From contig JAFGCC010000020.1 of assembly GCA_016932815.1 (NCBI GenBank), forward strand, positions 1 to 64,000: a stretch of DNA of 64,000 bases, in the 5' to 3' direction. This stretch comes from Microcaldota archaeon. GTDB lineage: Archaea; Micrarchaeota; Micrarchaeia; Anstonellales; Bilamarchaeaceae. A model generated the notes under the pieces. That model was not told the origin of the DNA. It saw nothing but the letters and a program-made list of their open reading frames with translations, and made no database searches. The translations under genes were made by a program, and so were the position numbers. Shown piece by piece: positions 2,203 to 51,095 of this stretch; position 1 is the stretch's first letter, and each line of letters begins with the position of its first letter.

Positions 2203-5200
2203 TCACTTTTTCTTCCATAGGTATGCAAATGCCACAATCACCACGGCGGCGAGTATGAAGGGCATGATATTTGCGGCTTCCTCCGAAACCTGCGCGCCCC
2301 GCCCATAGCCTTCAACCTCGAAGTATTCTTCCTCCGATTCGAAGGAATAGGAGAGTTCCCCGCTCCCTTCAACCACGATTGTGTTCGCGCCGGGGAGCAC
2401 CTCATGCTCGCTCTCAATTCCGCCAAGGCTCACGCGCAAGAGCGCAGGGCCATCCCCCTCCCAATAAACCTCAATGGTGGTGTTGTATTCTGTGATGTGC
2501 GGCTCCACGTACGCCTTTTCGTAGAACACAAAGTGCGTGAAATCCGAATACCCCGAATGCTCCGGGGCATACATCGCATAAGCATGGGTGGGAAGCGCGG
2601 TAAAGTCCCCCTTGTGCGTAACCCTCAGCGTGTATTCCAGCTCAACTCCCCCTTCAAGCGAATTGAGGAAGAATACTGCCCTATCCTCCCGTGCTTCCAT
2701 CCGGTATCCCCCATAATAATGCCAGTACCTGCCCGCTTCCTCGCGCACTATCTCTGAGCCAAGGGGAATCGGGTCCTCAATTGCAACGTATTCTCCGCTC
2801 CCATTTACTGTGAGCTTTACCTTTATCTCATCTCCAACACGCGAAACAGTCCTCTCGTATTCGCGCGAAACCGCTATTTCCCCTTCGGGTATCTCATCTG
2901 AGTAGTGCGCAATCCCGAGAGTATAGTATAGGGGCCCGAATCCGTCGCGCTCAAGTGTTAGCTTATGGCTCCCATCAATAAGCGCAATTTCCACGCTGCC
3001 AACGCCCTCATCCCCCATCCTTCCCTCATAAACTTTCTCCCCGTCCAGATAAACCGTTGCAATGTAATCCGAGCGCAATTCCCCGCTCACTTTCGCATAT
3101 TCCGTCAAAGCGAGAACCGTGCGCGCGGTATCCTTTGTGCTAACCCAGTACCTGCCCTTTTTCTCAAGCATGAGCCAGTTGACGCACTTCCTCGCATATT
3201 CCATCTCGCCATTTTTGGCAAAGGCTTCTAGCGCATAGGAAGTAAGCTCGGTGTCGCTGTGGTACCAGCGGTATCCCTCATCGTATTCAAGCCTGCAGTA
3301 ATCCCCGAAGCACTCAAGAGAGGAAATGAGCCCTGAGCACTCCCCGTCCGTGCACTTTGATAATTCGCCAAACACCCCCTCTGGATACGAGGATGCTTCC
3401 CCCCCGGCAATCCTGTTCAACACGAAGAGGGCATACGGGCTTTGCGCACCCCTTAGCCATTTGAGCCCGGATTCGTAAACCTCAAAATCAACGGAAATTC
3501 CCGCATTTTCCGCAATGAAGAGCCCGTCCATCACGTATGCGCTAATGCGCTCATCCTGCCCGTTAAACCAGCCCCAGCTGCCATCAGTGTTCTGGTGGGC
3601 GTATATGCGCCCTAGGCCGTCGTCTATCAATGCGGAGAGGTTCTCTTCCCCCGCGTATTCTAGCCCAAGTTCATCAAGCGCATAAATAAGCACGACATCC
3701 GGAAGGAACCCGCTCATAGTCTGCTCTATGCACCCATAAGGATAGCTAACAAGGTAGTCCAGGCTCTCGAAAGCCGAGGCCAAAACCGATGAATGCAGCG
3801 AAAGCGAGACCTCCGCACCTTCTGGCGAATCGTAATCAACGCTCCCAGAATCATCCACTGCCCCGGATTCTCCTTCGAACACTTCTATTCCCATTTCCTT
3901 TATCTGGAGAGGAAGCTTTACCGCGTCCCCTTCGCCGCCTTCAACCCAAAGCAGGAGCTCCCCATCCCCCCTCCCAATTGCCTTGAGCGGGAAATACGCG
4001 GTAACATCTTCCCCGCTCTCCAGGCTTAAGTATCGCACCGGGCTCCCCAGAACCTCTATTCCCCCCGCGGTTTCCAAAGTGGCCTTGAAAGTAACCCTCT
4101 CATTCCCGTAATTAAATAGGGTTGCGGGGATTGCCGCAACGTCCCCGACCACCAATGCCGCAGGAGGGCTCAGCCTGCCTATTACGTCCTTTGTGACTAT
4201 TGCGGAACTAGTTCCCATGCCCACGCTCGTTCCCCTGGAAGCGACCGCGGTTATGTTCCATGTGGTAAGGGTGTCTGGTATGTGCCAGACCACTTCCGCT
4301 TCCCCACCTTCTAAAAACACATAAGGAATCCAGAGCGCGGTTTCTATGAACTTCTCGCGCACCCTTATCTCGTCCTTGGTCGGAGAAGGCGCATCCTGCG
4401 CGGATTCTTCCACAATGCCCCCTGCCGCATAAACCAGCCCGTCTGAGCGGTATGGGTAGATGTTTGAGTCCCAGCTAAAGAGGATGGTGTAGTCTTCAAG
4501 CGGATAGCCATAGAAATACGAATAGACGTCCCTCCATTGCGCATCCGAGAGGTCTATTATCGCCTGGTCCACGATTGCTACCGAGGCTGTTGCATCTGAA
4601 GCCTCCCCCCCGCTTTGCGCGCTTATTTGGATCGTAGCGGTGTCTCCTGGCCCATATACCTCGTTGTGCCCAAGCCCCACTTCCAGCCATTCTTCGCCGC
4701 GCACAAGGTAATTGGCGTACCCGGAATACCTTTCCCCGCCTTTTATCGCATAGAAATTTATGCTGCTAGTCTCCCCCGCCTCCATGTAAAGCGAATTCAC
4801 CCCGGGCTCTATTTCAAAGAATGAAATCCCAAGCCCTCCTCCTTCGGAGATTGCAATGAGCCTGCCCGCAACCGGGGAGGTTAGGGTAACTTCCATCCGT
4901 TCTCCCGCAGAGTATTCCTCCTTGTCCAGCGAAACTTCCAGGTAGCTCCAGCTCCAATAGCTCCATTCCGAAACATAGAAATACTCAAATGCCTCCGCTG
5001 AGCCGGCTTCTGCGTAAACTACGTATTGCCCGGTTTCGGTTGGGGTAAATGAGAAGCTGTATTGCCCATCCTGAGTTTCAAATTCATCTTCGAAGATTGG
5101 AGTTGCGTTCTCCATCCATTCATTCCTGCTCCGGTAATAATAGTAATCCTCCTCGTGGTATATGCGTATGCTCCCGGAAGTGTCAAGCGCCTCCTCGTTT

Positions 5201-6528
5201 TCGTCGTAGGAGAGGATTGTAACCAGGCCGCTCTCGTTTGCCTGCATATCCTCTGCAATTATGTTGAGGTTTTCCTTTTCTAAGACCGCAACGACCAGTG
5301 ATTCCTCGCTCACTACCTCACTATCGTCGGCAACTTTCACGCCTATCTCGTACATCCCGGTCTCGTTTGCCCCCCTCCACTCAATTTTGCCCGTTCCGTT
5401 TACGGTATATACGGTTCCCTCCGCAACCTTCACTTTGTTGTAGTAGGGTATGCACATGCAATCAAGGTAGTAAGGCGACCAGTAATAAGGGGAAGCGTAA
5501 ATCTCAAAATCCGCCTGGGCGGATGCGCTCTGCCCAAAATAGTATTGGGTATCCACTTCAACCCAGATTGTTTCGTTTACAACGAACCTCTCCTTGTTAG
5601 CAGAAAGCGACACCTTTATCTCGGGCCGCTTGTATTCTTGCACCTCAAAGGAATGCCAGCCCACGTAATCCTCCCCCTTGCGCATGGAAACCGAATACCT
5701 CCCTAGTGCAGCCTCCTCATCCAGCACGAAATCCAGGCTTACGCGAGAGTTCACAACCCCCACGGGCTTAGAATAAACGACTCCGTAGTCCGGGTCGCGT
5801 ATTTCCACATCCACTTCCCCTTCTATCGTTTCGTAGGAATCCCCGTTGTCCAGGAAAATTACCGACGAAAAATGCACCGTTTCCCCAGGCTGGTATAGCT
5901 CCTTGTCGCTAAAAGCGTAGGCCGCATAATCCTCATAATAATACATCTCCCTCTCGTAAATAGGGTAATCGTAGCTGTATATCTCCATGCTGGTTTCTTC
6001 TCCCACGTATTCTGCGGAAATCGCACTCAGGTTTTCCGTTTCAAAATTGAATATCCCCCATGCCCCGGAAACGGTTTCCACGATTGTCTCGTTTTCCTCT
6101 TTCCCATAATGCAGGAAAATGTTCCCCCCTTCTATCGCGCTCCCATCCTCCTTGTACAAGAACAGTCCCTTCCCCTCCTTTCCTATCGCTGCGGCAATCC
6201 CTATTGAAGTTACCCTGAATTCCTCCTCTTCGTCTTCTAGGTCGTCGCGCACCCTCACGGTGTAATCCCCAGAAGGCAGCGAGAATTCAAACGATTCGTA
6301 GGAGTAGCGGTAATACCCCCATTCGTCCCTCCCGCTCCCTTGCACCGCGCGCAATTCCGAATATGCCTCTTCCCCCCCTTCTGCGTAAATTGTAAAGACA
6401 ATGGTGCCTTCGGCTCCGCTTACCCCTATTTCTATGTTCTCATAGGGAGCGTATTCTGAGGCGGCGTCAATCCAGAGTGCATTTGCGCACCCTGCCAAAA
6501 TAAGCAATGCGAGGAAGAACCTGTTCAT
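2203..6528 (-). CDS. alpha-2-macroglobulin-like surface lipoprotein
   Basis: This 1441-residue protein is of the alpha-2-macroglobulin family, which traps proteases in animals and bacteria. The N-terminus is a lipoprotein-type signal (LLILAGC, Cys about residue 14). The body has beta-rich MG-like domains. The intact thioester motif YGCIEQ sits near residue 933 and is followed by an alpha/alpha-toroid-like region with Trp/Gly repeats (GSWGWFNG). A C-terminal receptor-like domain ends in one membrane helix (FILAAVVIVAFAYLW) and KKK. A dual lipid plus C-terminal anchor is unusual. A TATA box (TCTTTAAAT) and a GGAG site precede the start. No penicillin-binding-protein 1C partner, usual beside bacterial homologues, is present. 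A defensive or adhesive role at the cell surface is inferred. Confidence 0.88.
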   Translation of the reverse strand: MNRFFLALLILAGCANALWIDAASEYAPYENIEIGVSGAEGTIVFTIYAEGGEEAYSELRAVQGSGRDEWGYYRYSYESFEFSLPSGDYTVRVRDDLEDEEEEFRVTSIGIAAAIGKEGKGLFLYKEDGSAIEGGNIFLHYGKEENETIVETVSGAWGIFNFETENLSAISAEYVGEETSMEIYSYDYPIYEREMYYYEDYAAYAFSDKELYQPGETVHFSSVIFLDNGDSYETIEGEVDVEIRDPDYGVVYSKPVGVVNSRVSLDFVLDEEAALGRYSVSMRKGEDYVGWHSFEVQEYKRPEIKVSLSANKERFVVNETIWVEVDTQYYFGQSASAQADFEIYASPYYWSPYYLDCMCIPYYNKVKVAEGTVYTVNGTGKIEWRGANETGMYEIGVKVADDSEVVSEESLVVAVLEKENLNIIAEDMQANESGLVTILSYDENEEALDTSGSIRIYHEEDYYYYRSRNEWMENATPIFEDEFETQDGQYSFSFTPTETGQYVVYAEAGSAEAFEYFYVSEWSYWSWSYLEVSLDKEEYSAGERMEVTLTSPVAGRLIAISEGGGLGISFFEIEPGVNSLYMEAGETSSINFYAIKGGERYSGYANYLVRGEEWLEVGLGHNEVYGPGDTATIQISAQSGGEASDATASVAIVDQAIIDLSDAQWRDVYSYFYGYPLEDYTILFSWDSNIYPYRSDGLVYAAGGIVEESAQDAPSPTKDEIRVREKFIETALWIPYVFLEGGEAEVVWHIPDTLTTWNITAVASRGTSVGMGTSSAIVTKDVIGRLSPPAALVVGDVAAIPATLFNYGNERVTFKATLETAGGIEVLGSPVRYLSLESGEDVTAYFPLKAIGRGDGELLLWVEGGEGDAVKLPLQIKEMGIEVFEGESGAVDDSGSVDYDSPEGAEVSLSLHSSVLASAFESLDYLVSYPYGCIEQTMSGFLPDVVLIYALDELGLEYAGEENLSALIDDGLGRIYAHQNTDGSWGWFNGQDERISAYVMDGLFIAENAGISVDFEVYESGLKWLRGAQSPYALFVLNRIAGGEASSYPEGVFGELSKCTDGECSGLISSLECFGDYCRLEYDEGYRWYHSDTELTSYALEAFAKNGEMEYARKCVNWLMLEKKGRYWVSTKDTARTVLALTEYAKVSGELRSDYIATVYLDGEKVYEGRMGDEGVGSVEIALIDGSHKLTLERDGFGPLYYTLGIAHYSDEIPEGEIAVSREYERTVSRVGDEIKVKLTVNGSGEYVAIEDPIPLGSEIVREEAGRYWHYYGGYRMEAREDRAVFFLNSLEGGVELEYTLRVTHKGDFTALPTHAYAMYAPEHSGYSDFTHFVFYEKAYVEPHITEYNTTIEVYWEGDGPALLRVSLGGIESEHEVLPGANTIVVEGSGELSYSFESEEEYFEVEGYGRGAQVSEEAANIMPFILAAVVIVAFAYLWKKK

Positions 6529-8368: not shown

Positions 8369-10543
8369 CTAGCGGTAAACGTAATTTAGCAGCGCTTCCC
8401 CGGGGCTCCACACCTGGAGGATTTCGGTGTCCCCTCCGTGCTTTTCTATCTCCTTTCTTCCTTTTTCTATTATCTGCCCGAACGTTGCCTTCTCCTGGCC
8501 CTGGCTCCCAATTAGGAGGTCCACAAGCGAGTTGGTGACCTGCCCCCTCCCGGTTGCGGTGTTGCTAATAAAGCGCAAATCCGTGCCCCCCCTTTCTTCT
8601 ATGTAGGAAGCGATGTCCCCGCTGCTCCCGCAGCTTCCGGGGATGAACAAAACGTGCCCCTTTTTCCCCTTGAATATCCCGCTTGGGAAGTTCTTTCCCA
8701 GGCTGTAGCTGTGCCCGCGGAAAGTGATTATCCGGTTTGGGTTCTTCTTTAGCTCCCTTGAAACGAATTTCACATTCTCTTCTTTGGTTTCCCCCATAAA
8801 CAGCACTATCCTCGCAGTGGGCGTTTCGTAGATTAGTTCCCCACCCTCCCCCGTTTTGGGCTTGCCGTATTTTGCAAACCACCTCTTGCTTGCAGGATAG
8901 TGGTCACTCCCCGTATCCTCCTTGTCGAAGACCTGCAATATCTGCAGCTTCCCGTCTTTAGTGTAGAGTGCCGGGTCGAAGTACGCATTCTCCCCCAATT
9001 TCCTAACCTCCGCAAAGTGTTCTTTGATAAGCGGGGCTTCCTCCCCGTATAGCTCGTAGAGCAGGTACTCTATCCCGCTAAGGATTTTTTCCTCCCCGTA
9101 TCCTTTAGCCTCCCCGAGTTTTCTTAGCTTGTCCCTGAACCTGAGGCCAAGCTTGTATTTTGCACTCGGAAGGCCCTTTATCTTGTGCACCGCGTTTGCC
9201 ATGAGGAAGAAGTCGCCGCCATTGAAAAAGTCCTTTTTAAGCGGCCACAGAACAGAATCGATGACTTCCACGGCTTCCTTTTCGGTAAACAGGGAGTTCT
9301 TCCTGCCGTAGAACCGGTCGTAGTTTACCGCCCGCAGCACCAGGTTGCTGCATTCTTTGGTGCCCAGCAAATTGTACCTCTTTAGCAGGTACCCAACCCC
9401 CTTCTTCCCGATTCCCGCTTTGAGCCGGTCGAAGAGCAGGTGGTTGGTGGAAGTGTAAAAATTTTTCGGATCGCTAAGGAGGAGGGTAAAGACCTGCATG
9501 TCCGATAGGCTATTGAGGTACTCCATGCGCTTTGGGGTATCATCGTGCAGTTCGTCCAGGGGCGCCCCGAGGTCGCTTGCCGCCGGGTTCTCAGAGAGCA
9601 TGCTTATGACAAGGTTTTCAAGCTTCCCCTTCCCATGGCAGTATTCTGCGAATTTCCGGGATACCCCAAGGTCCCACATGGACTGGAACGCCCTGGCGCT
9701 TTTGACCTGTTCTGCCACATCCAGCAGTGCGCTTATGATGGTCTCCGGCTTCCGGGCAAACATCTCGCGCAGTTCGTCGTTTGACCTTATGCCCCCCAGC
9801 ACCGCTCTCGTTCCCTTCATGCATATCCGCTTGATTGTGAGCAGGGTTTTCGTGAAATCCTGCGGATTCATGCGGAATACCTCCATCATCCATGCATTTT
9901 CAAAGAGCCTGAAAGCCTCCGGTGCCGCCTCCCCGACCTCCCTTGCAACTCCCACTAGCTCATCCTCATGCTTTTCCAAGAGCTCCTGCAGTTTGCTGCC
10001 TGATAAGACCGTGAGTGCATCCCCTATTTCCATGCTCCCGCCATCCTCGCGCATTGCCTTTGCAACCTCCACAAATGCGCTCCTGTGTTCCCTTAAGGCG
10101 CGCTCGACTTTCGGTTCCTTCATGGCCTCAAAAGCCCAATTCGCCTGCTTCCCGCAGGCTTTTGCAATCTCCACGAACGCCCCGGAATCTTTGTGGAAGA
10201 ACTCCTTGGCCTCCCCGATTGCTTCAAAAGCATCCTCAGTATTTGATTGGGCGGCTATTGCAATCTCCACGAATGCATCCGTATGCGCTACGAACAGCCT
10301 TGCAACATCGGCGTTCCCAAGGGCGGATAATGCCTCATCCGCCCAGTGCCCAGCAGCCTTCCCGATTTCTTCCCGCGCGTCCATTACCTCCCGCAGTTTT
10401 TCCCGCGGATTTTCGGTTTTCATGATTTCGGATATGAGGTTTGCGCTGCAGTAGCGGCCCAGCTCGCCTATTACCTCCTTTTCCGTAATTGCTACTTTGG
10501 GAATCTCTTCTTTTTCCTTAACAGCCTTCTTGAACGCGCACAT
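8369..10543 (-). CDS. helical-repeat protein with caspase-like (clan CD) C-terminal domain
   Basis: This 724-residue protein matches no family I recognise. Residues about 70-290 hold at least five imperfect repeats of 35-40 residues with the pattern aFVEIAkA...AFEAm, suggesting a HEAT- or TPR-like solenoid. Residues about 290-540 are helical without clear repeats. The C-terminal 180 residues alternate strands and helices: ARIVLFMG, then IITFRGHS (His about 611), then VLFIPGSCGSSG (Cys about 638), then LRFISNTATG. The order strand-His, strand-Cys-Gly resembles caspase/gingipain/CHAT peptidases. The catalytic reading is inference. A GAATAAATAG box lies upstream, so it has its own promoter. It converges on the ThyX-like gene. 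Confidence 0.7.
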   Translation of the reverse strand: MCAFKKAVKEKEEIPKVAITEKEVIGELGRYCSANLISEIMKTENPREKLREVMDAREEIGKAAGHWADEALSALGNADVARLFVAHTDAFVEIAIAAQSNTEDAFEAIGEAKEFFHKDSGAFVEIAKACGKQANWAFEAMKEPKVERALREHRSAFVEVAKAMREDGGSMEIGDALTVLSGSKLQELLEKHEDELVGVAREVGEAAPEAFRLFENAWMMEVFRMNPQDFTKTLLTIKRICMKGTRAVLGGIRSNDELREMFARKPETIISALLDVAEQVKSARAFQSMWDLGVSRKFAEYCHGKGKLENLVISMLSENPAASDLGAPLDELHDDTPKRMEYLNSLSDMQVFTLLLSDPKNFYTSTNHLLFDRLKAGIGKKGVGYLLKRYNLLGTKECSNLVLRAVNYDRFYGRKNSLFTEKEAVEVIDSVLWPLKKDFFNGGDFFLMANAVHKIKGLPSAKYKLGLRFRDKLRKLGEAKGYGEEKILSGIEYLLYELYGEEAPLIKEHFAEVRKLGENAYFDPALYTKDGKLQILQVFDKEDTGSDHYPASKRWFAKYGKPKTGEGGELIYETPTARIVLFMGETKEENVKFVSRELKKNPNRIITFRGHSYSLGKNFPSGIFKGKKGHVLFIPGSCGSSGDIASYIEERGGTDLRFISNTATGRGQVTNSLVDLLIGSQGQEKATFGQIIEKGRKEIEKHGGDTEILQVWSPGEALLNYVYR

Positions 10544-36405: not shown

Positions 36406-37578
36406 CTAGAACCCAATAAACATGGCGGGGTATTCTTCGGAAACGCGCTCGATTGCGCCAAAGAGCTCGCGCAGCCTCCGCAATGCGGGGGAGAATTCCC
36501 CCCGCTCCATCATCCCGTATACCCCCATCAGGGAAACGTTTCCCCCCGCGTGCTTCTTGAATGATGCGAGCATTTCCGCGCCCTTCTTCCCAAACGAGCG
36601 CTTCCTCTCCCCCATGTAAACGTACTGGTTCCTGCATTCTTTTAGGGCGAAGCGGCACATTTCCCCTAGCGCCTCGGATTCCCTTCCCGAATCCATGAGC
36701 CTTGCAATCTCCATCGCCTTGGATTCTTCAAGCCCCTTTCCCAGGAAATACTCAAGGTATTCCTCTGCGGGCACCGCTGCAACCCCCCTCCTTGCAGCAG
36801 CTTTGGCCTCGTATATCTTCTCGCGCAGGCCGAGCGTTACGTGGTTCCCGCTTGGGAGGATGTCCACTACCCCGGAATCAAAGAGGATGCGCGCAACGCT
36901 TTCCGAGGCGGCCTTGTCCCTGAAAGTGAGCTTGGTTAGCTTCCCTGTTTCCAGGTATTCTCTTATCCTGCCCATGGCCGCGCTTCCCGCTAGCCTGCCC
37001 TTTGGGGCGTGGATTCTGGCTTCAAGCGCGCCCATATTGACCGCCATCCTGGATGAGAGGAGCTCTTTTGCGCTGCTTATGCTAATCGGGATTGGCCCCC
37101 TGCCCGGAGCCTTTTTTTCATCCGAGCCGAATTCTCCTGCAAACCATTGGTAGTACTCCTTCCCGATTCCCTCCTTGTCCATCTCTACTAGGATTTTTGC
37201 GAGCCTTCCCCTTCCATGCTCAAGCTCCTTCTCCTGGTTCTGCAGTACGTATTCGTAGAGTTCCCCCATCCTTGCCCCGCCTTCTGCCATCTCAAAAATT
37301 ATGCTAGCAAGGCTCGAGCACGCCTCTTTTCCCCCTCCGGCGGCATAAACGAAACGCATCGCGCATTTTAGGAAGAGCATCCTCTCCCCCTTATTGGCCA
37401 TCTTGTACTGTGCCCGGATTTTCCTGCACGCAGTTGTCCCGAGAGTCTCCACAAAGCACTTCCTGAACGCCTTCTGCGCCTTATTGGTTTCCGCCCATGC
37501 TTCAAGCCCCTTTGCAAAGCTCCGAGCTTCGTTCCAGCGAAGCTCTTCCTTTGCTTTCTCGGCCTTGTTTCCCGCCAT
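36406..37578 (-). CDS. hypothetical helical protein
   Basis: This 390-residue protein is of unknown family, mostly helical and basic, with no signal or membrane segment. Residues 20-130 contain several Cys-bearing helices (FRKCFVETLGTTACRKIRA, LFLKCAMRFVYAAGGGKEACSSL). Residues 190-270 look like a winged-helix-like domain (RIREYLETGKLTKLTFRDKAASESVARILFDSGVVDILPSGNHVTLGL). The C-terminal third resembles helical repeats (GKGLEESKAMEIARLMDSGRESEALGEMCRFALK). The ATG at 37578 is preferred over the longer ORF because a TTATAAACC box lies about 25 nt upstream. It points away from the tRNA-Arg gene. Confidence 0.7.
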   Translation of the reverse strand: MAGNKAEKAKEELRWNEARSFAKGLEAWAETNKAQKAFRKCFVETLGTTACRKIRAQYKMANKGERMLFLKCAMRFVYAAGGGKEACSSLASIIFEMAEGGARMGELYEYVLQNQEKELEHGRGRLAKILVEMDKEGIGKEYYQWFAGEFGSDEKKAPGRGPIPISISSAKELLSSRMAVNMGALEARIHAPKGRLAGSAAMGRIREYLETGKLTKLTFRDKAASESVARILFDSGVVDILPSGNHVTLGLREKIYEAKAAARRGVAAVPAEEYLEYFLGKGLEESKAMEIARLMDSGRESEALGEMCRFALKECRNQYVYMGERKRSFGKKGAEMLASFKKHAGGNVSLMGVYGMMERGEFSPALRRLRELFGAIERVSEEYPAMFIGF

Positions 37579-37722
37579 CGCTTTTCCATAACTACTCTTT
37601 GGTTTATAAGTTTTGCAGTAATTGCGGATTCCCCCCTCTAATTCCGGGCTCCGCTCTTCTGGGGAACGGTGGCGTGCCCATGCAAAAGCTTTTAATTCTC
37701 TATTGAGTAATTGCCGCCACAC

Positions 37723-37828
37723 GGGCCCGTAGCGCAGCCTGGACAGCGCGGCTGCCTTCTAAGCAGTAGGCCGTGGGTTCAAAACATTTTTTGGAAATCC
37801 AGGAAATGTGAAAATCCCACCGGGCCCG
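37723..37828 (+). tRNA. tRNA-Arg(UCU) with a 31-nt intron in the T loop
   Basis: The acceptor arms GGGCCCG and CGGGCCC pair perfectly. The D stem is GCGC/GCGC and the anticodon arm is GCTGC-CTTCTAA-GCAGT (anticodon TCT, Arg). The T stem halves GTGGG and CCCAC are separated by TTCAAAACATTTT...GTGAAAAT instead of a 7-nt loop. Removing 31 nt (about 37784-37814; the exact edges are ambiguous by up to 3 nt because of flanking A runs) restores a TTCAAAT loop. The insert folds as ACATTT...AAATGT with an inner TGGA/TCCA, a bulge-helix-bulge-like shape for the archaeal splicing endonuclease. A TTTTAATT box lies near 37689-37697. Confidence 0.9.
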
Positions 37829-42982: not shown

Positions 42983-43429
42983 CTATACCTGCTTCCTCGC
43001 CATTGCCCCAAAGTGCGGCAGTTCGTAGTCTTCTCCGTTGAAGACCTTGTACGCTGCATAGAGCCCCGCTATCGCCGCCGCGCAAAGCACGAGGAACGAA
43101 GCAAGCCCGGTAACGCACGCTAGGACCGCAAGCGGGCCGAGCATCCCAAGCACCATACTAATTACCTGTAGCACTCCGAAAACGAACCATGTTGCAAGCC
43201 ATAGCAACATCGACTGCAAGGAGTGGAACTTGACGAACCTGTCGTCTTTTTTTACCAGGTAGATGAGCAGGGGAATTACGAACCCTGCACCCGTAAGGTA
43301 CCCGAATGCGGCAATGAGGTTGCTGTCATTGCCCTTTCCGCCTCCTGCTGCGGGTTTTGGAGCCGCCGCAGGCTTTTCGGCCTCAGGAGCTGCCTGCTCT
43401 GTTGCAGGCTTTTCTTTCTTTTCAGCCAT
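42983..43429 (-). CDS. DUF4870/Tic20-like membrane protein
   Basis: This 148-residue protein has a 40-residue Ala/Pro/Lys-rich cytoplasmic N-terminus, then about three membrane helices near 40-58, 75-95 and 98-125. The intervening motif KKDDRFVKFHSLQSMLLWLA is characteristic of the DUF4870/Tic20-like family, where the conserved F-x-x-F-H-x-x-Q-s segment sits between helices. Function is unknown. It is a single gene facing the PolD operon. Upstream the TTTAAA-like box and then the IS-like relic begin. Confidence 0.82.
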   Translation of the reverse strand: MAEKKEKPATEQAAPEAEKPAAAPKPAAGGGKGNDSNLIAAFGYLTGAGFVIPLLIYLVKKDDRFVKFHSLQSMLLWLATWFVFGVLQVISMVLGMLGPLAVLACVTGLASFLVLCAAAIAGLYAAYKVFNGEDYELPHFGAMARKQV

Positions 43430-43589: not shown

Positions 43590-43715
43590 AAGCTTTTTAG
43601 TGAACCTCCCCGCCCTAAAGGGCAGGGATTCCTGCTTCATTGAGGGCGCTTACGCTTATAGGCGCAGAGGCTTTCCTCTCCACGGGCTTGGCATCCCGCA
43701 GTTCCTGCGGTAGAT
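43590..43715 (-). mobile_element. IS200/IS605 (tnpB-type) right-end relic
   Basis: On the minus strand the tract ends with GCAGGAATCCCTGCCC TTTA GGGCGGGG AGGTTCAC. This closely resembles the 3' end of tnpB-carrying IS200/IS605-family elements, where the transposon end, the last TnpB codons and the omega-RNA scaffold overlap. Several hairpins precede it: CCGCAG-TTC-CTGCGG (43695-43709), AGAGG-CTTT-CCTCT, and a GCGC pair. No tnpA or tnpB ORF remains. The family assignment rests on sequence style remembered from such elements and was not searched. Confidence 0.5.
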
Positions 43716-43915: not shown

Positions 43916-43930
43916 ATGCCTAGTTTATAC

Positions 43931-46900
43931 ATGAGCGCCCAGGCCACAAAGAGGAAGAGGGAGGCTCCGGAGGAATCCGGCCTGACCTCAGCGGTCTATT
44001 CCAAATCCGAAACCGCCATGGGCGAATCGCTTATTAGCGGAGAAGAGTCCGCGCTCGTGCGCTCTGAGGCTGCCCGCATAATCTCCCAGCTAGAGGGGGA
44101 GGGCGTGGACATCACTGATGCGGGATATTTGCTAATCCAGAAGATGAACGTCAAAAAGGGCGTTCCCAGCGACGAATTCATGGATGGAACGAGGCTCCAG
44201 GAAGTAGTGGAGCTCCCCAACCCCAAAGAGGACAGGGAGCATTTTGCAAGGAAACTCTCGGAATTTGCCCAGGCCCAGCAGGAACTCCCCCCGGAAGAGC
44301 GCTCGCACATCCACGTGGAGGTGCTCGAAAAAGAGGGGATTGCAATAATCACCAACACCTTCTTCCTGCCCGCCCCAATCCTCAAGAAGAAAGAAGAATT
44401 CGCACAGCTCTTTAGGGACATAGAAAAAACTGGCAACGCAGAATCCCTGCTCTGCGCAATAGGCTGCTGGAGTGCGCTAAAAGCAAGCGTGCAAAAGAGC
44501 CTGGAACTATCCTACCGCGTGGAATATTATGGGAGGGCGGGCGAGCGCAGGCTCGCCATGCTCGGTGAAGAGCTAGTCTCCATACACCGCGAGGTTGCAA
44601 AGGAGACCTACTCCCGCCTCAAGCTCCTCTCGGAGGGAACCTCCCCCGATTCTGCGGCAATTACGAATTCCGCAATGCGCACAGAGGAATTGATGAAGAA
44701 GGAGAAGCGCATATACTCAAAGATTGAGGAAATCCAGCTCTCAGCACTCTCAAACCGCCTGCTTGGGAAATGGGCCATGAACAGGATTGAAGCGGGCATA
44801 AAGGAGGGCTATTACACCCAGCTAGAAGTTGCGGCATACGAGGGAGTAAAGCGCGAAATAGAACTCCTCTCACAATCGATGCGCTCGCTATCCACCGCCG
44901 GCATCCAGAAGGTCCTGACAAAGGGGATGGAGGGGCTCAATTCCAAGGAGAAAGAGGCATTTGAGAAGCTAGAATCCCTCGTTGCCCACCTTGAATTCAT
45001 AGCATACAAGGCTGACATGCACGAACTAGACGAGAGGATGCACAAGGAATCCCATGAATACATGCAATCCCCGCGCACCCCTCTTTCCAATTACGCCAAG
45101 CTCAGCAAGATGCCAATGAGCCAGCTTGCAATGCCCAATATAGAGAGGGTTGAGGAAATTTCCTTTAGGGCGAAAAAGCACACGGAGATGCTAAAGAAGC
45201 TTGTGGGCTCCCTAGAAGATCTCACGCATGCAGAGAAATCAAAATACAAAAAAGAGATTGATTCGCTTGCGCAGGAGCTGGAAACCGGGGTGCTCTCTTC
45301 CCTGGAAGCGGCTTCGGCAAAAGCCGACAGGGTGCTGGGGGGCATAGAAGCGCTCCTAGGAGAGCGCGTTCTGGAGAAGCGCGCGGCAGACAAGGACAAT
45401 CCCTGGAACGTCCGGGCTTCAAGCTACGTTAAAATCTACTCCCTCCGCTACAGCCTCGAAGTAATTGCGGCATCCGCAGCCGCAGGCGGGGCGATAGGGG
45501 GGTTCGCCACCCGCAGCCCCGGGGGCGTGTGGGCAGGGGCAAAAGTTGGCGCAAAAGTGGGCGGCCTCATAGTCGCTTCCGCAGGCGCCTTCCTAACCGG
45601 GGAGGCAATGTACCACTACCTTGCAGGGGAGGGAAACATGGAACAGGCGGTAGAGGACATGAGGATTGGCTCAACCTACCTCGCATTTGGGCTGCTGGGA
45701 GCTCCCATGAAGGCATTGAGCATCCCAGTAAAGCTCGCAACCGGAGGGGGGCTTGTAGCTTCCAATTCATTGCTAATCTATGAGCACCTAAAAGCGGGAA
45801 GGTACTGGGAAGTCCCAGAAGACGTCGCTTATGTGGCATTGGGAAGCGTCGCATTCATCCGCACCGCAACCGGGGTTTTCCGCGCAATAAGGCTAGCAGA
45901 GCCGGCAGAGAGCCTGGCAATAGCAAACGCCTCTGGGGCAGCCAAAATCAAAATCGGAACCAAGCTTGCCGAGCGCATGGTAAAAGTGCACAAGGCGGGG
46001 TACAGCCCGGTCTGGGTAGGGGTAAACGCGGGTTTTGCAACCCTCGGCAACTGGGGCGAAATATCAGAATCAATAGACAAAGGCAATTACAACGTTGCCC
46101 TAAGCCAGCTCGGGCGCGGATTCGTGGACATGACGCGCGGCATGGTGACTTTCGAATTCGCGCTTGCCGGAGTTGCCGGAGGCGCCAGGGGAGGCGTGCG
46201 CTTTTTTAGCGCAAGGATTTCCTCTGCAAACGCAAGGGCGGTTGCGATACTCCAGAAAACGGGCCTCTTTGAGCGCGTATCCGACATGGCTTATGGGGCG
46301 GGCTTTGAGGCTTCGGGCACCGAGGCAAGCGCGCGCCTGCTGCAACTGACATTCGCAGAAGGCAGGGTTTCCGCGCGCTACGTGCAAGAATACCTGGGCC
46401 TAAAATCGCTCTCCGAAGCCGGAAAGATTTCCGAAGCGATAAACTCGGACTGGAAGCTTGCGCGCACCCTCCTTAGCAAGGGGAAGAAGGCGGGGAAAGC
46501 TTGGGAGAGGTTTTCTGCAAAGGTGGAGAGGGCCGCGAAATCCCGCAAGGCACGCTTCGGAAAGGCGGCCCTGCTAGTTGGCGCAGTCTATTATCTTGAG
46601 AAGAGGAGCGTGGAGGAGCAGCTTAACGCAAAGGCGCTTGAGCAGGTGATAACCCCCTACGAATTCGAATTCATCTCTTCCGCTTTCGCTTCCGCAAATG
46701 CCCGGATAAAGGTTTCGGAGGTAGGGCAGGAGGATTTCTATAATGCCGTGGGCATTGCAAAGGAAATCTCGGACGAGGTGGATGCCGGAGCAGGCTCTCC
46801 TAGCCTGCAGTTTGGGATGGATTCGCAAAAGCGCCTCTGGGTGCTTTCCGCCTGCGCGTACGCGCTCCTCCTAAACGGGCAGAAGGCAACAAAGGCCCGG

Positions 46901-47353
46901 ATTTCCTCCCTCGCTTCCAAGGTTCATGATGCAACGCAGGAAAACGGCATAAGCCTCGTTTACCGCCCGGTTGCGCAGAGGGAAAAGGGAGGCTCATACA
47001 GCACGCATTTTGGGAGCGTCGCGATGATGGCCTCGATGCTCCTGCGCGATGGCGTGCAGGGGTTCTCGGATGCCTATTCTTATGTTTCCGCGGCAGGGGA
47101 ACAGCCCCCGGAGTTCCTGGATTACGCAATAACTTCCATGTATGCCGCTTCAATTTACGATAAGGGATACGAGTGGGGCTCGGAAGCCGCCTCCTCCGTT
47201 TTTGATGCTACCAGGGAAACCCCGGAGCACGCGACACTAGGATGGGAACTCCTCTTCGCCTTAGGAGCGCTAAACTCCCCAACCCCTTCAAAGAGGGAAG
47301 TGGAAGGGGCATTCGCAGCAAGCAGGAGGCAGGCGGCCCTCTGGGGAGAATAA
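43931..47353 (+). CDS. giant hypothetical protein with glycine-zipper membrane region
   Basis: The 1140-residue protein (1145 from the first ATG) is of no recognised family. Residues 1-500 are helical, highly charged and coiled-coil-like. Residues about 510-560 are Ala/Gly-rich with small-xxx-small spacing (AAAGGAIGGF, GAKVGAKVGGLIVASAGAFL), as in glycine-zipper membrane hairpins. More hydrophobic segments follow near 590-625 and 650-690. Residues 900-1140 form a second soluble, possibly all-helical domain (FGMDSQKRLWVLSACAYALLLNGQKATKARI). No signal peptide is seen. The ATG at 43931 fits the TATA distance better than that at 43916. It is followed 84 nt later by another large unknown gene. 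Confidence 0.75.
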   Translation: MSAQATKRKREAPEESGLTSAVYSKSETAMGESLISGEESALVRSEAARIISQLEGEGVDITDAGYLLIQKMNVKKGVPSDEFMDGTRLQEVVELPNPKEDREHFARKLSEFAQAQQELPPEERSHIHVEVLEKEGIAIITNTFFLPAPILKKKEEFAQLFRDIEKTGNAESLLCAIGCWSALKASVQKSLELSYRVEYYGRAGERRLAMLGEELVSIHREVAKETYSRLKLLSEGTSPDSAAITNSAMRTEELMKKEKRIYSKIEEIQLSALSNRLLGKWAMNRIEAGIKEGYYTQLEVAAYEGVKREIELLSQSMRSLSTAGIQKVLTKGMEGLNSKEKEAFEKLESLVAHLEFIAYKADMHELDERMHKESHEYMQSPRTPLSNYAKLSKMPMSQLAMPNIERVEEISFRAKKHTEMLKKLVGSLEDLTHAEKSKYKKEIDSLAQELETGVLSSLEAASAKADRVLGGIEALLGERVLEKRAADKDNPWNVRASSYVKIYSLRYSLEVIAASAAAGGAIGGFATRSPGGVWAGAKVGAKVGGLIVASAGAFLTGEAMYHYLAGEGNMEQAVEDMRIGSTYLAFGLLGAPMKALSIPVKLATGGGLVASNSLLIYEHLKAGRYWEVPEDVAYVALGSVAFIRTATGVFRAIRLAEPAESLAIANASGAAKIKIGTKLAERMVKVHKAGYSPVWVGVNAGFATLGNWGEISESIDKGNYNVALSQLGRGFVDMTRGMVTFEFALAGVAGGARGGVRFFSARISSANARAVAILQKTGLFERVSDMAYGAGFEASGTEASARLLQLTFAEGRVSARYVQEYLGLKSLSEAGKISEAINSDWKLARTLLSKGKKAGKAWERFSAKVERAAKSRKARFGKAALLVGAVYYLEKRSVEEQLNAKALEQVITPYEFEFISSAFASANARIKVSEVGQEDFYNAVGIAKEISDEVDAGAGSPSLQFGMDSQKRLWVLSACAYALLLNGQKATKARISSLASKVHDATQENGISLVYRPVAQREKGGSYSTHFGSVAMMASMLLRDGVQGFSDAYSYVSAAGEQPPEFLDYAITSMYAASIYDKGYEWGSEAASSVFDATRETPEHATLGWELLFALGALNSPTPSKREVEGAFAASRRQAALWGE

Positions 47354-47437
47354 GCGGGCCAGCTTACTTCTAGAACTCCCCGTTTGCGGGCAAATCGTTT
47401 TAAACTCACTATGAGTAAAATTTATAGGTGAAGATTC

Positions 47438-49648
47438 ATGGCAGGACCACAGTACATGGGAAGGGACGCTAAGGGGGCAACCGCACTCAAAGAGACTACT
47501 CTGGAAAAATTGTACAACACTTATGCCAAGCAATTCAGGATTGAATTGAGGGATAAATTCGGAGGGCTTTTCCCGTCCAAGCCGCTAAGCGAATACAGTG
47601 AAGCGGAAATCGCCAACATAAGCGGCGAACTCATGGAATCCAAGGAGTACTGGAAGGCACTAGATGACGCTTACAAGGGTTTTGAAGAGAGCATGAAGGC
47701 CCTTAGTTCCCAGGGAAAGCTGCAGCTAGACGGAATGAAGCTTCCGGCAAACGAGGCAATCGCCAAGGCGGAACTGCTGCTTAGGACCGAATACGCGATG
47801 GCGGCAGAAGGGCTAAACTCGCTTGGGCTAGAAGGCGCCTGGAAGAAATTGGGCAAGGAACTGAAAGCCAACATGAAGGCCAAGAAGGGCAGGAGGCAGA
47901 TGGGGGTGGCCAGGCAGAGCGATTACGAGAAGCTCCTAGAGGACCCGGACCGCTTTGCGCAGAGCTTCAAGGAATCAAAAAACCTCCTGGAGTTCCTAAA
48001 CAAAGTTACGCAGAACGAAGGGATGGCCAGGAAGATTTACCAGAAACTAAGCAAGGGCAGCCCGACAGATTTCAAGCTGCTAGAAGCCGCAGTAAAGCTC
48101 AAAATCGTTCCGGACGTTGCGGAACTCCCAAAGGTCACAATCAGGGGCAAGCTCGCCGACAAGCTCTTTGAGGCGGGCAGGATGAACCTCGCTTCAATGT
48201 GGGGAGGCGTAAAGGGGATGGCCAAGCTCATAAAGATGGTGAGGGAGCAGGCGACCATGGCCGCCCGCGCCGCCGCATTGGGCTCAAGGACAATCCGCCA
48301 GGAAGCATACAGGGAATTCGCTCAGAGCGAGTGGCTCCACAAGGCCACCACAACCAAGCTGGTAATAGGCTTCATCGCACTCTGGGCGCTAAAATCCTGC
48401 GTCGGCTCCAAAGTGGAGAAATCACTCGGGCTTGATTCCACTCCCAAGAAGGACCCGATGAGCGATGCCCTGCGCGGGGTAGCCGCGTCTAACCTCAACC
48501 GCAAGAACATAACGAAAATGCTGGATGCGCTTGAAGTAGAAGGCAGGAAACTCTCCGAAGAAGAGAAGATGCGCGCACTAAGGATTGCAGGGGGAAGCAA
48601 GCAGGACACCTCCGACAAAACCCTCACCGAGTACGTGAAGATTGCCGCAATACTGCAGTTCATGCCTAATAAGAAGGCAAACGAGATTGCGAAACTCTCA
48701 AAGGCGGTTTATGCATACGTGGACCCCAAAAAGCAGGAGGAATTCGCAAGGAAGGCACTTGAGTTTTCCAAGAAAGAGCCAAAGCTGGATGCCGGCGCGC
48801 TCTTTGCAAAAACCATGGCTTCTTCCGAAGCCCTAAAAGGAGCGGTCCTAGAGTCATACTGGGGAAGGGAGTTTTCGCCCAGGCTCTTTGTGGGCTTTGC
48901 AGAAGGGGGCAAGGCTAACCCCAACCTGTCTCCTTTGCGCTCAATGCTGCGCAAGGCCGCAGTGGACAAAAAGATTACCCAGCAGCAGATGGTTAATCTC
49001 GCCAAGATGTTCGCTTCGCTCTACACGGCAACCAACAAGAAGGGGGAGCAGGAAGGCTACGTCCCCAAGACCTACGAATCGGATTTCGAGGCAGCACTAA
49101 ACCTCACTTCCAGGGGATTCACCCCCATGGCAATAAGGGCATCACTCTCCGGGATGAGCGGGTATTTCGACTACTACCAGCAAGGAAAGGCCCAGCAGGC
49201 AATCTCCGAAGTGATGGAGAGGCTCCCCAAGGCGGCAAGCGGCGCGCAGGTGCGCGGGATGCTCCTAGATTACATGCAGGAGCACAAGGGCTGGCTCAAG
49301 AAGGGCTCACTTGCCAGGTACACTTCGTTTGCAATAGGGAAACTGCTAGATGAGAATTCTTCTTTGGAAAAGCTCCTGGACTCTGACAAGCGCAAGGGGC
49401 TTGCTAACTACCTCTCGCGCAGGTATCTCGGAACAAAGGGGGCAGAACTCCTCACATACGAGCAGATAGTGAATGTCGCGGCCGCCCTTGGGAAATACGC
49501 TTCCGCAAACGACGAGAACCTAATGGGGGTGCGCAACTCCAAGACCAGCGTATTCGGGGCAAACAAATTCATGGACGAATTCGTGGACACCATCTACCCG
49601 CCTGAGCCCAAACCCGAAGCCGCGCAGGATGCGGGCCCCGAATCCTAG
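47438..49648 (+). CDS. large hypothetical helical protein
   Basis: This 736-residue protein is not recognised. Residues 1-300 are helical and basic (repeated KxLGKELKANMKAKKGRRQM type stretches). One hydrophobic helix lies near 308-325 (KLVIGFIALWALKSCVG). Residues 340-710 are helical with a repeat-like rhythm (YVDPKKQEEFARKALEFSKKEPKLDAGALFAKTMASSE). The tail is Pro/Glu/Ala-rich (PEPKPEAAQDAGPES). GGTG stands 7 nt before the ATG and an AATTTATAGG box just upstream, so it can be expressed independently. Size, composition and location suggest it works with the 1140-residue protein upstream, perhaps as a structural pair. Confidence 0.75.
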   Translation: MAGPQYMGRDAKGATALKETTLEKLYNTYAKQFRIELRDKFGGLFPSKPLSEYSEAEIANISGELMESKEYWKALDDAYKGFEESMKALSSQGKLQLDGMKLPANEAIAKAELLLRTEYAMAAEGLNSLGLEGAWKKLGKELKANMKAKKGRRQMGVARQSDYEKLLEDPDRFAQSFKESKNLLEFLNKVTQNEGMARKIYQKLSKGSPTDFKLLEAAVKLKIVPDVAELPKVTIRGKLADKLFEAGRMNLASMWGGVKGMAKLIKMVREQATMAARAAALGSRTIRQEAYREFAQSEWLHKATTTKLVIGFIALWALKSCVGSKVEKSLGLDSTPKKDPMSDALRGVAASNLNRKNITKMLDALEVEGRKLSEEEKMRALRIAGGSKQDTSDKTLTEYVKIAAILQFMPNKKANEIAKLSKAVYAYVDPKKQEEFARKALEFSKKEPKLDAGALFAKTMASSEALKGAVLESYWGREFSPRLFVGFAEGGKANPNLSPLRSMLRKAAVDKKITQQQMVNLAKMFASLYTATNKKGEQEGYVPKTYESDFEAALNLTSRGFTPMAIRASLSGMSGYFDYYQQGKAQQAISEVMERLPKAASGAQVRGMLLDYMQEHKGWLKKGSLARYTSFAIGKLLDENSSLEKLLDSDKRKGLANYLSRRYLGTKGAELLTYEQIVNVAAALGKYASANDENLMGVRNSKTSVFGANKFMDEFVDTIYPPEPKPEAAQDAGPES

Positions 49649-49694: not shown

Positions 49695-51095
49695 GTGGAG
49701 AACGTGAAGATATACAATTCGCTAACCAGGGAAAAAGAGGACTTCGCGCCCGTGGGAGAGGGAAAGCTCTACTTCTACGTGTGCGGGCTAACCCCCTACG
49801 ACCATGCGCACCTGGGGCACGCTCGGACGTACATCTCCATGGACCTAATAAAGCGCTACCTGCTCCACAAGGGCTACAAGGTGTTCCACATCCAGAACAT
49901 AACGGATGTAGAAGACAAGATTTTCGCCCGCGCAAAAAAAATTGGCACATCGCCTTTGGAACTAGCAGAAAAGTTCCAGGATGAGGCGATGGAGGAATTC
50001 GGGAAACTCAACATCCTTAGCGCGGATGCATACCCGAGGGTGAGCGCCCACATCCCGCAGATAATAAGCATGATAGAAAAGATAATTGAAAACGGGTATG
50101 CATACGAAACCGGGACAGGGGTTTATTTCTCGGTTTCCTCTTTCAAAGGATACGGGAAGCTCTCCGGGCAGAAGCTTGACGAAATAAAAAAGGGTGCCAG
50201 GGTGGAGCCCGATGAAACGAAAAAGGACCCGGCTGATTTTGCGCTCTGGAAAAAAGGGGAAGACGTTCTCACATTCGATAGCCCATGGGGGAAGGGCCGC
50301 CCCGGCTGGCACATAGAGTGCTCCGCGATGGCGATGGAATACACAAAGGGAAGGGCGCTTGACATCCACGGCGGAGGCATGGACCTCTCTTTCCCGCACC
50401 ACGAAAACGAGATTGCGCAGGCCGAAGCCGCAAGGGGAGAGCAGTTTGCAAAGTACTGGATGCACACGGGCTTCTTAACGGTAAACGGGGAAAAAATGGG
50501 AAAATCCCTTGGGAACTTCATAGTCATAAATGAAGTGCTGGAGCGCTGCCCGCCCTATGCATTGAGGCTCTTTTTCCTGCATAGCCATTATAGGAGCCCC
50601 GTTGATTACAACGCGGAAGCTGTGTGCTCGGCGCAGGTTGCAGCCGAGAGATTGTTCAACTTCATGGACAAGGCCGGGGAACTTCCCAAAGAAGGCGGGG
50701 CGGAAAACCATGAACTTCGCGCGAAACTCATAGCCGAAAAAGAATCATTCTACTTTGCAATGGACGACGATTTTGACACCCCCTCCGCCCTTGCGCACAT
50801 GTTCGCCTACATGAACGCGTGCTTCTCCGAATTGCGCGGGGAATCCCCGGATTATCCTGCGATTGCGGATGCAAGGGAGGAATTCTCCAAGATGCTCTGG
50901 ATTTTCGGGCTCAAAAAAGAGGAGAAAAAGCTCGGCTCCAAAGAGGGGAAGGAAATAGATTCCCTAATTGCACAGCGCGAAGAGGCAAGGGCGAAAAAGG
51001 ATTTTGCCAGGGCCGATGAGATACGCGGCAAGCTCTCGGAATTAGGCGTGGCCCTTGAGGATACCGATGGCGGGCCCAGATGGAGGCTAAAATGA
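49695..51095 (+). CDS. cysS: cysteinyl-tRNA synthetase
   Basis: The 466-residue class I synthetase charges tRNA-Cys. It has YVCGLTPYDHAHLGHART (zinc Cys and HIGH-like HLGH, near 28-45), WHIECSAMAMEY (zinc Cys near 209), GGGMDLSFPHHENEIAQ, and KMGKSLGN (KMSKS-type) near 270-277. The GTG start at 49695 gives the expected N-terminus (VKIYNSLTREKEDF). A TTTTATATTA box lies about 25-30 nt upstream. The final ATGA overlaps the start of the lipoprotein gene. Confidence 0.97.
   Translation: MENVKIYNSLTREKEDFAPVGEGKLYFYVCGLTPYDHAHLGHARTYISMDLIKRYLLHKGYKVFHIQNITDVEDKIFARAKKIGTSPLELAEKFQDEAMEEFGKLNILSADAYPRVSAHIPQIISMIEKIIENGYAYETGTGVYFSVSSFKGYGKLSGQKLDEIKKGARVEPDETKKDPADFALWKKGEDVLTFDSPWGKGRPGWHIECSAMAMEYTKGRALDIHGGGMDLSFPHHENEIAQAEAARGEQFAKYWMHTGFLTVNGEKMGKSLGNFIVINEVLERCPPYALRLFFLHSHYRSPVDYNAEAVCSAQVAAERLFNFMDKAGELPKEGGAENHELRAKLIAEKESFYFAMDDDFDTPSALAHMFAYMNACFSELRGESPDYPAIADAREEFSKMLWIFGLKKEEKKLGSKEGKEIDSLIAQREEARAKKDFARADEIRGKLSELGVALEDTDGGPRWRLK

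What the first reader, a model, noticed from the sequence alone, without database searches (positions are those of the whole stretch)
43931..49648. Neighbouring pair of very large, unrecognised helical proteins
Seen: 1140- and 736-residue proteins 84 nt apart on one strand. The first has a glycine-zipper-like membrane hairpin region between two big helical domains, and the second has one membrane helix in a mostly helical chain. Neither matches a family I know. About 9% of the window is thus unexplained coding DNA next to a transposon relic. Inference: a membrane-attached structural or toxin-like machine specific to the lineage.
Basis: partly seen in the sequence, partly recalled or inferred. 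Interest (0 to 1): 0.7.

Follow-up and report, generated by a model that had tools for sequence, protein, structure and literature searches.

The report
Fast-evolving membrane protein pair in Micrarchaeota
Two large neighbouring genes of a tiny archaeon encode membrane-associated helical proteins that match no known family; they are kept together, even at different chromosomal places, in related genera while their sequences change very fast, so they probably work as one lineage-specific membrane complex of still unknown task.

Summary
P1 (43931-47353+, 1140 aa) and P2 (47438-49648+, 736 aa) are intact genes 84 nt apart in a Micrarchaeota genome. P1 has a glycine-rich hydrophobic hairpin between two helical domains; P2 has one predicted membrane helix. 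P1 and P2 match nothing above cut-off in Pfam, NCBIfam or PADLOC. The pair is not unique to this genome. A profile of the P1 core finds 14 of 301 phylum genomes, all in one family: every genome of five genera and none of the other eight. A second large gene follows P1 in 12 of the 14; G041 is split by a contig end; G051 has a short P1 without partner. The pair sits between the DUF4870 gene and cysS in the window's genus, but between ino1 and STT3 in a neighbouring genus, whose polD-cysS site (one genome checked) lacks it. So the two genes behave as a unit. The membrane core is the conserved part (49% identity, soluble ends about 31%, DNA polymerase 68-77%), which argues against a tip-swapping toxin. 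Best reading: a vertically inherited, membrane-anchored two-protein complex; its activity is not shown. The 'transposon relic' is a tnpB end younger than the pair.

The parts
43931..47353 (+). P1, 1140 aa (in-frame ATG also at 43916). Helical N-domain about 37-480, membrane core about 487-770, weak hydrophobic helix about 878-892, helical C-domain about 896-1136
45362..46240 (+). conserved core of P1 (residues 478-770): Gly-rich hydrophobic hairpin and following amphipathic helices; the part that finds distant relatives
   Evidence: alignment A9 and phylum search; 49% mean identity in the genus against about 31% for the ends
47438..49648 (+). P2, 736 aa; helical, one predicted membrane helix at residues 308-326; C-terminal part predicted as paired helices, low confidence
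43590..43714 (.). about 125-bp relic of the 3' end of an IS605-type tnpB element; not part of the pair and younger than it
   Evidence: gap sizes
42983..43429 (-). DUF4870 membrane protein, left neighbour; next to cysS in genera without the pair at this site
49695..51095 (+). cysS, right neighbour

Best explanation
P1 and P2 are a vertically inherited, lineage-restricted two-gene module whose products form one membrane-anchored complex. Shown: conserved adjacency and order, retention in every sampled genome of five genera, presence at different chromosomal sites in different genera, a conserved hydrophobic core in P1, a predicted membrane helix in most second proteins, and very fast evolution of the soluble parts. 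Inferred: that they bind each other; that P1 is inserted by its Gly-rich hairpin with its helical domains on the cytoplasmic side (no signal peptide seen); that P2 spans the membrane once, perhaps N-in/C-out; and that the complex is an envelope scaffold or contact device whose soluble surfaces evolve freely or under pressure from a partner, while the membrane core sets the function. The actual activity is not shown.
For: P1 in 6/6 g1, 5/5 g4 and the single genomes of g6, g7, g10. P2 in 6/6 g1. A second large gene downstream on the same strand in 5/5 g4, g6 and g10. Different sites, same unit: between the DUF4870 gene and cysS in g1, between ino1 and STT3 in g4; the polD-cysS site holds no large pair in the one g4 genome checked (G046) nor in g2, g8 and g11. 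G044: first seen by synteny as a 1463 + 757 aa pair, then found independently by the core profile at E = 3e-17. Core 49% identity against 32% and 31% for the ends. Most second proteins have one clear hydrophobic helix; in G044, g6 and g10 it is preceded by a positive flank. Native GC.
Against: Second proteins of g1, g4 and g6/g10 are not shown homologous to each other (hhalign probability at most 1.5%), so pairing across genera rests on position and architecture. G051 has P1 without a P2 beside it. Hydrophobic segments are moderate and not found in every member; G038 P2 has no clear one, and in g4 the helix position differs. No interaction, localisation or expression data. Structure models are weak (pLDDT 66 and 49).
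Confidence: 0.5

Rival explanations
1. Antagonism protein with its adaptor or immunity partner: P1 uses a Gly-rich hydrophobic segment to enter or permeabilise a neighbour's membrane, as described for glycine-zipper effectors, and P2 escorts or neutralises it.
For: The hairpin of two distant P1 relatives scores above the Pfam cut-off for DUF6861 (40.0 and 28.5 bits, cut-off 28). Glycine zippers serve effector translocation in Tde1 (PMC10240207). Fast evolution and a large two-gene unit fit an arms race.
Against: No toxin or secretion domain in any library. No hypervariable tip: N- and C-domains diverge equally and align end to end. Zippers not above chance in this P1 and one per protein in g4. 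Fixed, single-copy distribution. DUF6861 does not match P1 itself or any g1 or g4 P1 above cut-off.
Confidence: 0.15
2. Two unrelated fast-evolving genes that happen to be neighbours; P2 in g4, g6 and g10 is not the same thing as P2 in g1.
For: No detectable homology between the second proteins of different genera; G051 P1 stands alone.
Against: The order P1-P2 on one strand with a short gap recurs at different chromosomal sites and in 12 of 14 genomes, with a thirteenth broken only by a contig end; most second proteins share one membrane helix in a helical chain.
Confidence: 0.2
3. Domesticated virion proteins (tape-measure or ejection type): long helical chain with a Gly-rich membrane segment plus a helical partner.
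For: The top Foldseek matches of P1 in the viral library include many tape-measure and minor tail proteins (best E 0.009).
Against: No match at E 0.001 or better and TM-scores near 0.1; no PHROGs match for P1; no tblastn match in 50,697 phage records or in viral contigs; no virion gene seen nearby.
Confidence: 0.07

Closest known systems
DUF6861 (PF21724)
   Same: Gly-rich hydrophobic hairpin; two distant P1 relatives (L040 residues 1348-1433, L041 1012-1064) match above the cut-off in the same region as the P1 core
   Different: P1 itself and all g1 and g4 members do not match above cut-off; rest of the protein unrelated; DUF6861 is not mentioned in the paper library
Glycine-zipper effectors such as Tde1 (T6SS; PMC10240207)
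   Same: GxxxG-containing hydrophobic segment in a protein with an adjacent partner gene
   Different: No secretion system, toxin domain or immunity gene seen; zipper not conserved across the P1 family; compared from the literature only
Phage tape-measure and minor tail proteins
   Same: Long helical chain with hydrophobic Gly/Ala-rich segment; weak Foldseek ranking
   Different: No sequence relation, no virion genes around, fixed chromosomal single copy

Membership tests
DUF6861 (PF21724) | Pfam profile match at or above gathering score (28 bits) | tested here: not met
   Window P1: no match. Two distant relatives do reach it
Glycine-zipper translocating or pore-forming effectors | Consecutive GxxxG motifs conserved in the family | tested here: not met
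   Six motifs in P1 against 3.0 by composition shuffle (p 0.10); one per protein in the g4 members tested
Glycine-zipper translocating or pore-forming effectors | Toxin domain or membrane permeabilisation | tested here: inconclusive
   No toxin domain by profile; activity not testable here
Polymorphic toxins | Conserved N-terminal part with swapped C-terminal tips and immunity gene | tested here: not met
   C-domain homologous within the genus and as conserved as the N-domain, 31% against 32%
Phage tape-measure proteins | Sequence or fold relation, virion gene neighbourhood | tested here: inconclusive
   No sequence match; no fold match at E 0.001, but a weak model; neighbourhood is chromosomal housekeeping
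Known anti-phage defence systems (PADLOC) | Profile match | tested here: not met
   No match for P1 or P2; one 10.5-bit chance-level match in a relative

The most novel reading that the evidence does not exclude
The pair is the core of an undescribed envelope or cell-contact complex of one Micrarchaeota family, whose soluble parts diverge with each host or partner while the membrane core is kept; g6 and g10 versions extend P1 to 1818-2191 aa and carry a further related gene, in one case with a weak peptidoglycan-binding-like domain.
Probability: 0.2. Interest if true: 0.75.

Novelty: new member of a known kind. Interest (0 to 1): 0.42.

Why it matters
Micrarchaeota have small genomes (here 1.25 Mb), yet these genera spend 5.7 kb or more on two proteins without known relatives and keep them as a unit at different chromosomal sites. 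Such genes are candidates for lineage-specific envelope or partner-contact functions, which are poorly known in DPANN archaea. The case also shows how synteny plus a core profile finds relatives that whole-protein searches miss (G044).

Tried and rejected
Pfam, NCBIfam, PHROGs (P1 only) and PADLOC profiles, PDB sequence profiles: nothing credible for P1 and P2. Foldseek against PDB and (P1 only) BFVD, VIA-align 2 against PDB: only generic helical matches; P1 best Z 9.3 over 131 residues with rmsd 4.0, P2 best Z 6.3 over 109 residues with rmsd 3.9, both within the range given for unrelated helical models. No family is excluded by this. P1 and P2 as paralogues: not supported (hhalign 0.8%). Homology of second proteins across genera: not shown. 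Viral contigs, phages and plasmids: no relative of P1; P2 none in phages. STT3 tree: presence of the pair is clustered and one origin is not excluded, but the tree asks for two changes and the middle forks are open. Other phyla were not searched by profile; the genome-contig scan used g1 patterns only.

Full report
What is there. The window lies in a 1.25-Mb genome; public records with the closest relatives are titled Candidatus Micrarchaeota. P1 runs from 43931 (or 43916) to 47353 and P2 from 47438 to 49648, both on the + strand, without stops. Composition by codon position equals that of polD, cysS and STT3 around them, so they are not a recent foreign import by that measure.

Anatomy. P1 has a helical N-terminal domain with a small beta hairpin, a Gly/Ala-rich hydrophobic hairpin from about residue 500, further weakly hydrophobic helices to about 770, another short hydrophobic helix near 880 and a helical C-terminal domain. 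The model is moderate (mean pLDDT 66, the ends about 80, the membrane part 30-65). P2 is predicted all-helical with a membrane helix at 308-326; its model is poor (pLDDT 49). In one relative (L013) P2 carries a 237-bp in-frame tandem duplication, which explains part of the length differences within the genus (736-916 aa). No signal peptide is evident in P1 or P2 (sequence inspection). GxxxG-type motifs in P1 are not more frequent than its composition predicts.

Distribution. Whole-P1 search found relatives in 9 of 84 order genomes, the nine-row profile in 13 of 301, and a profile of the core alone in 14 of 301. All are in the window's own family: g1 6/6, g4 5/5, g6 1/1, g7 1/1, g10 1/1, and none in g2 (17 genomes), g3, g5, g8, g9, g11, g12 and g13. 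Absence means no match at this sensitivity; several of those genomes are incomplete. P2 is recognisable only within g1, in 6 of 6.

The pair as a unit. In g1 the order is polD small and large subunits, DUF4870 gene (reverse), P1, P2, cysS; in G041 the contig breaks between P1 and P2, and a second contig resumes with P2 and cysS. In g2 (three genomes looked at), g8 and g11 polD and cysS lie next to each other with at most a DUF4870-type gene or small frames between. In g4 the one genome checked (G046) also has polD next to cysS, while the g4 pair lies between ino1 and STT3, read from contigs of G045, G046, G047 and G044, and next to ino1 in G048. In G044 the pair (1463 and 757 aa) was first noticed only by position, since the earlier searches had missed it; the core profile then found it independently at E = 3e-17. 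In g6 and g10 a larger P1 (1818 and 2191 aa) is followed by a 469 or 479 aa protein with one membrane helix and, further on, by genes related to each other; one of these has a weak PG_binding_1 match. G051 (g7) has a 675-aa P1 lacking the C-domain and no P2 beside it. So 12 of 14 genomes show a large same-strand second gene downstream, one is split by a contig end and one lacks it. The direction of the move (into or out of the polD-cysS site) is not established.

Rates. Against the other g1 genomes the window's polD-L is 68-77% and cysS 67-71% identical, P1 27-37% and P2 24-28% over the alignable parts only. Within P1 the core is 49% identical on average, the N-domain 32% and the C-domain 31%. 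The membrane core is thus the constrained part, and the ends diverge together rather than being swapped.

The transposon relic. Window 43590-43714 is about 84% identical to two other places in the genome; in one the match covers the end of an IS605-type tnpB gene. The gap between the DUF4870 gene and P1 is 501 bp here but 124-125 bp in the other g1 genomes where both were read (L014, L015, L016, L017), so the relic came after the pair was already in place.

Interpretation. The strongest evidence is positional: two genes of undetectable relationship to anything else stay together at more than one chromosomal site and in nearly all sampled members of five genera. That supports a functional unit at the membrane. 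What it does is inferred. A toxin reading is weakened by the homologous ends, the fixed distribution and the unconserved zippers, but a DUF6861 match in two relatives keeps it open (glycine-zipper effectors: PMC10240207). A viral origin has no sequence support. The cross-genus identity of the second protein remains unproven.

Caveats. The relatives appear to be metagenome-assembled genomes (record titles). The gene calls in the relatives are my longest-frame calls, not annotation. Absence at the polD-cysS site was read in a few genomes per genus, one only for g4.

Noticed in passing
window 2206-6528 (-): 1441-aa alpha-2-macroglobulin-like protein (MG2, A2M, TED, bMG10 domains). Its TED domain is found in all six genomes of the window's genus and in none of the other 37 of the family.
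   Followed up: partly
window 43590-43714: Relic of an IS605-type tnpB 3' end; an apparently fuller tnpB with OrfB_IS605 and Cas12f1-like domains lies at L111 1691-2857.
   Followed up: yes
L015:4610-9334 (-) and L016:11298-16028 (-): polD large subunit carries an intein with LAGLIDADG domain in two relatives; the window's copy (1114 aa) has none. L070 (1665-aa frame) may have one too, not tested.
   Followed up: partly
window 8369-10543 (-): 724-aa protein without a Pfam match above cut-off and not related to P1 or P2.
   Followed up: partly
window 36406-37722 (-): 438-aa protein without Pfam match, about 37% identical in a congener.
   Followed up: no
window 37723-37781 (+): Second, weak tRNA candidate by Rfam (31 bits, cut-off 29), not called by ARAGORN; possibly degenerate.
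   Followed up: no
L041:11179-12141 (+), L040:3-878 (-): Related genes downstream of the g6 and g10 pair; the L041 one matches PG_binding_1 just above cut-off.
   Followed up: partly
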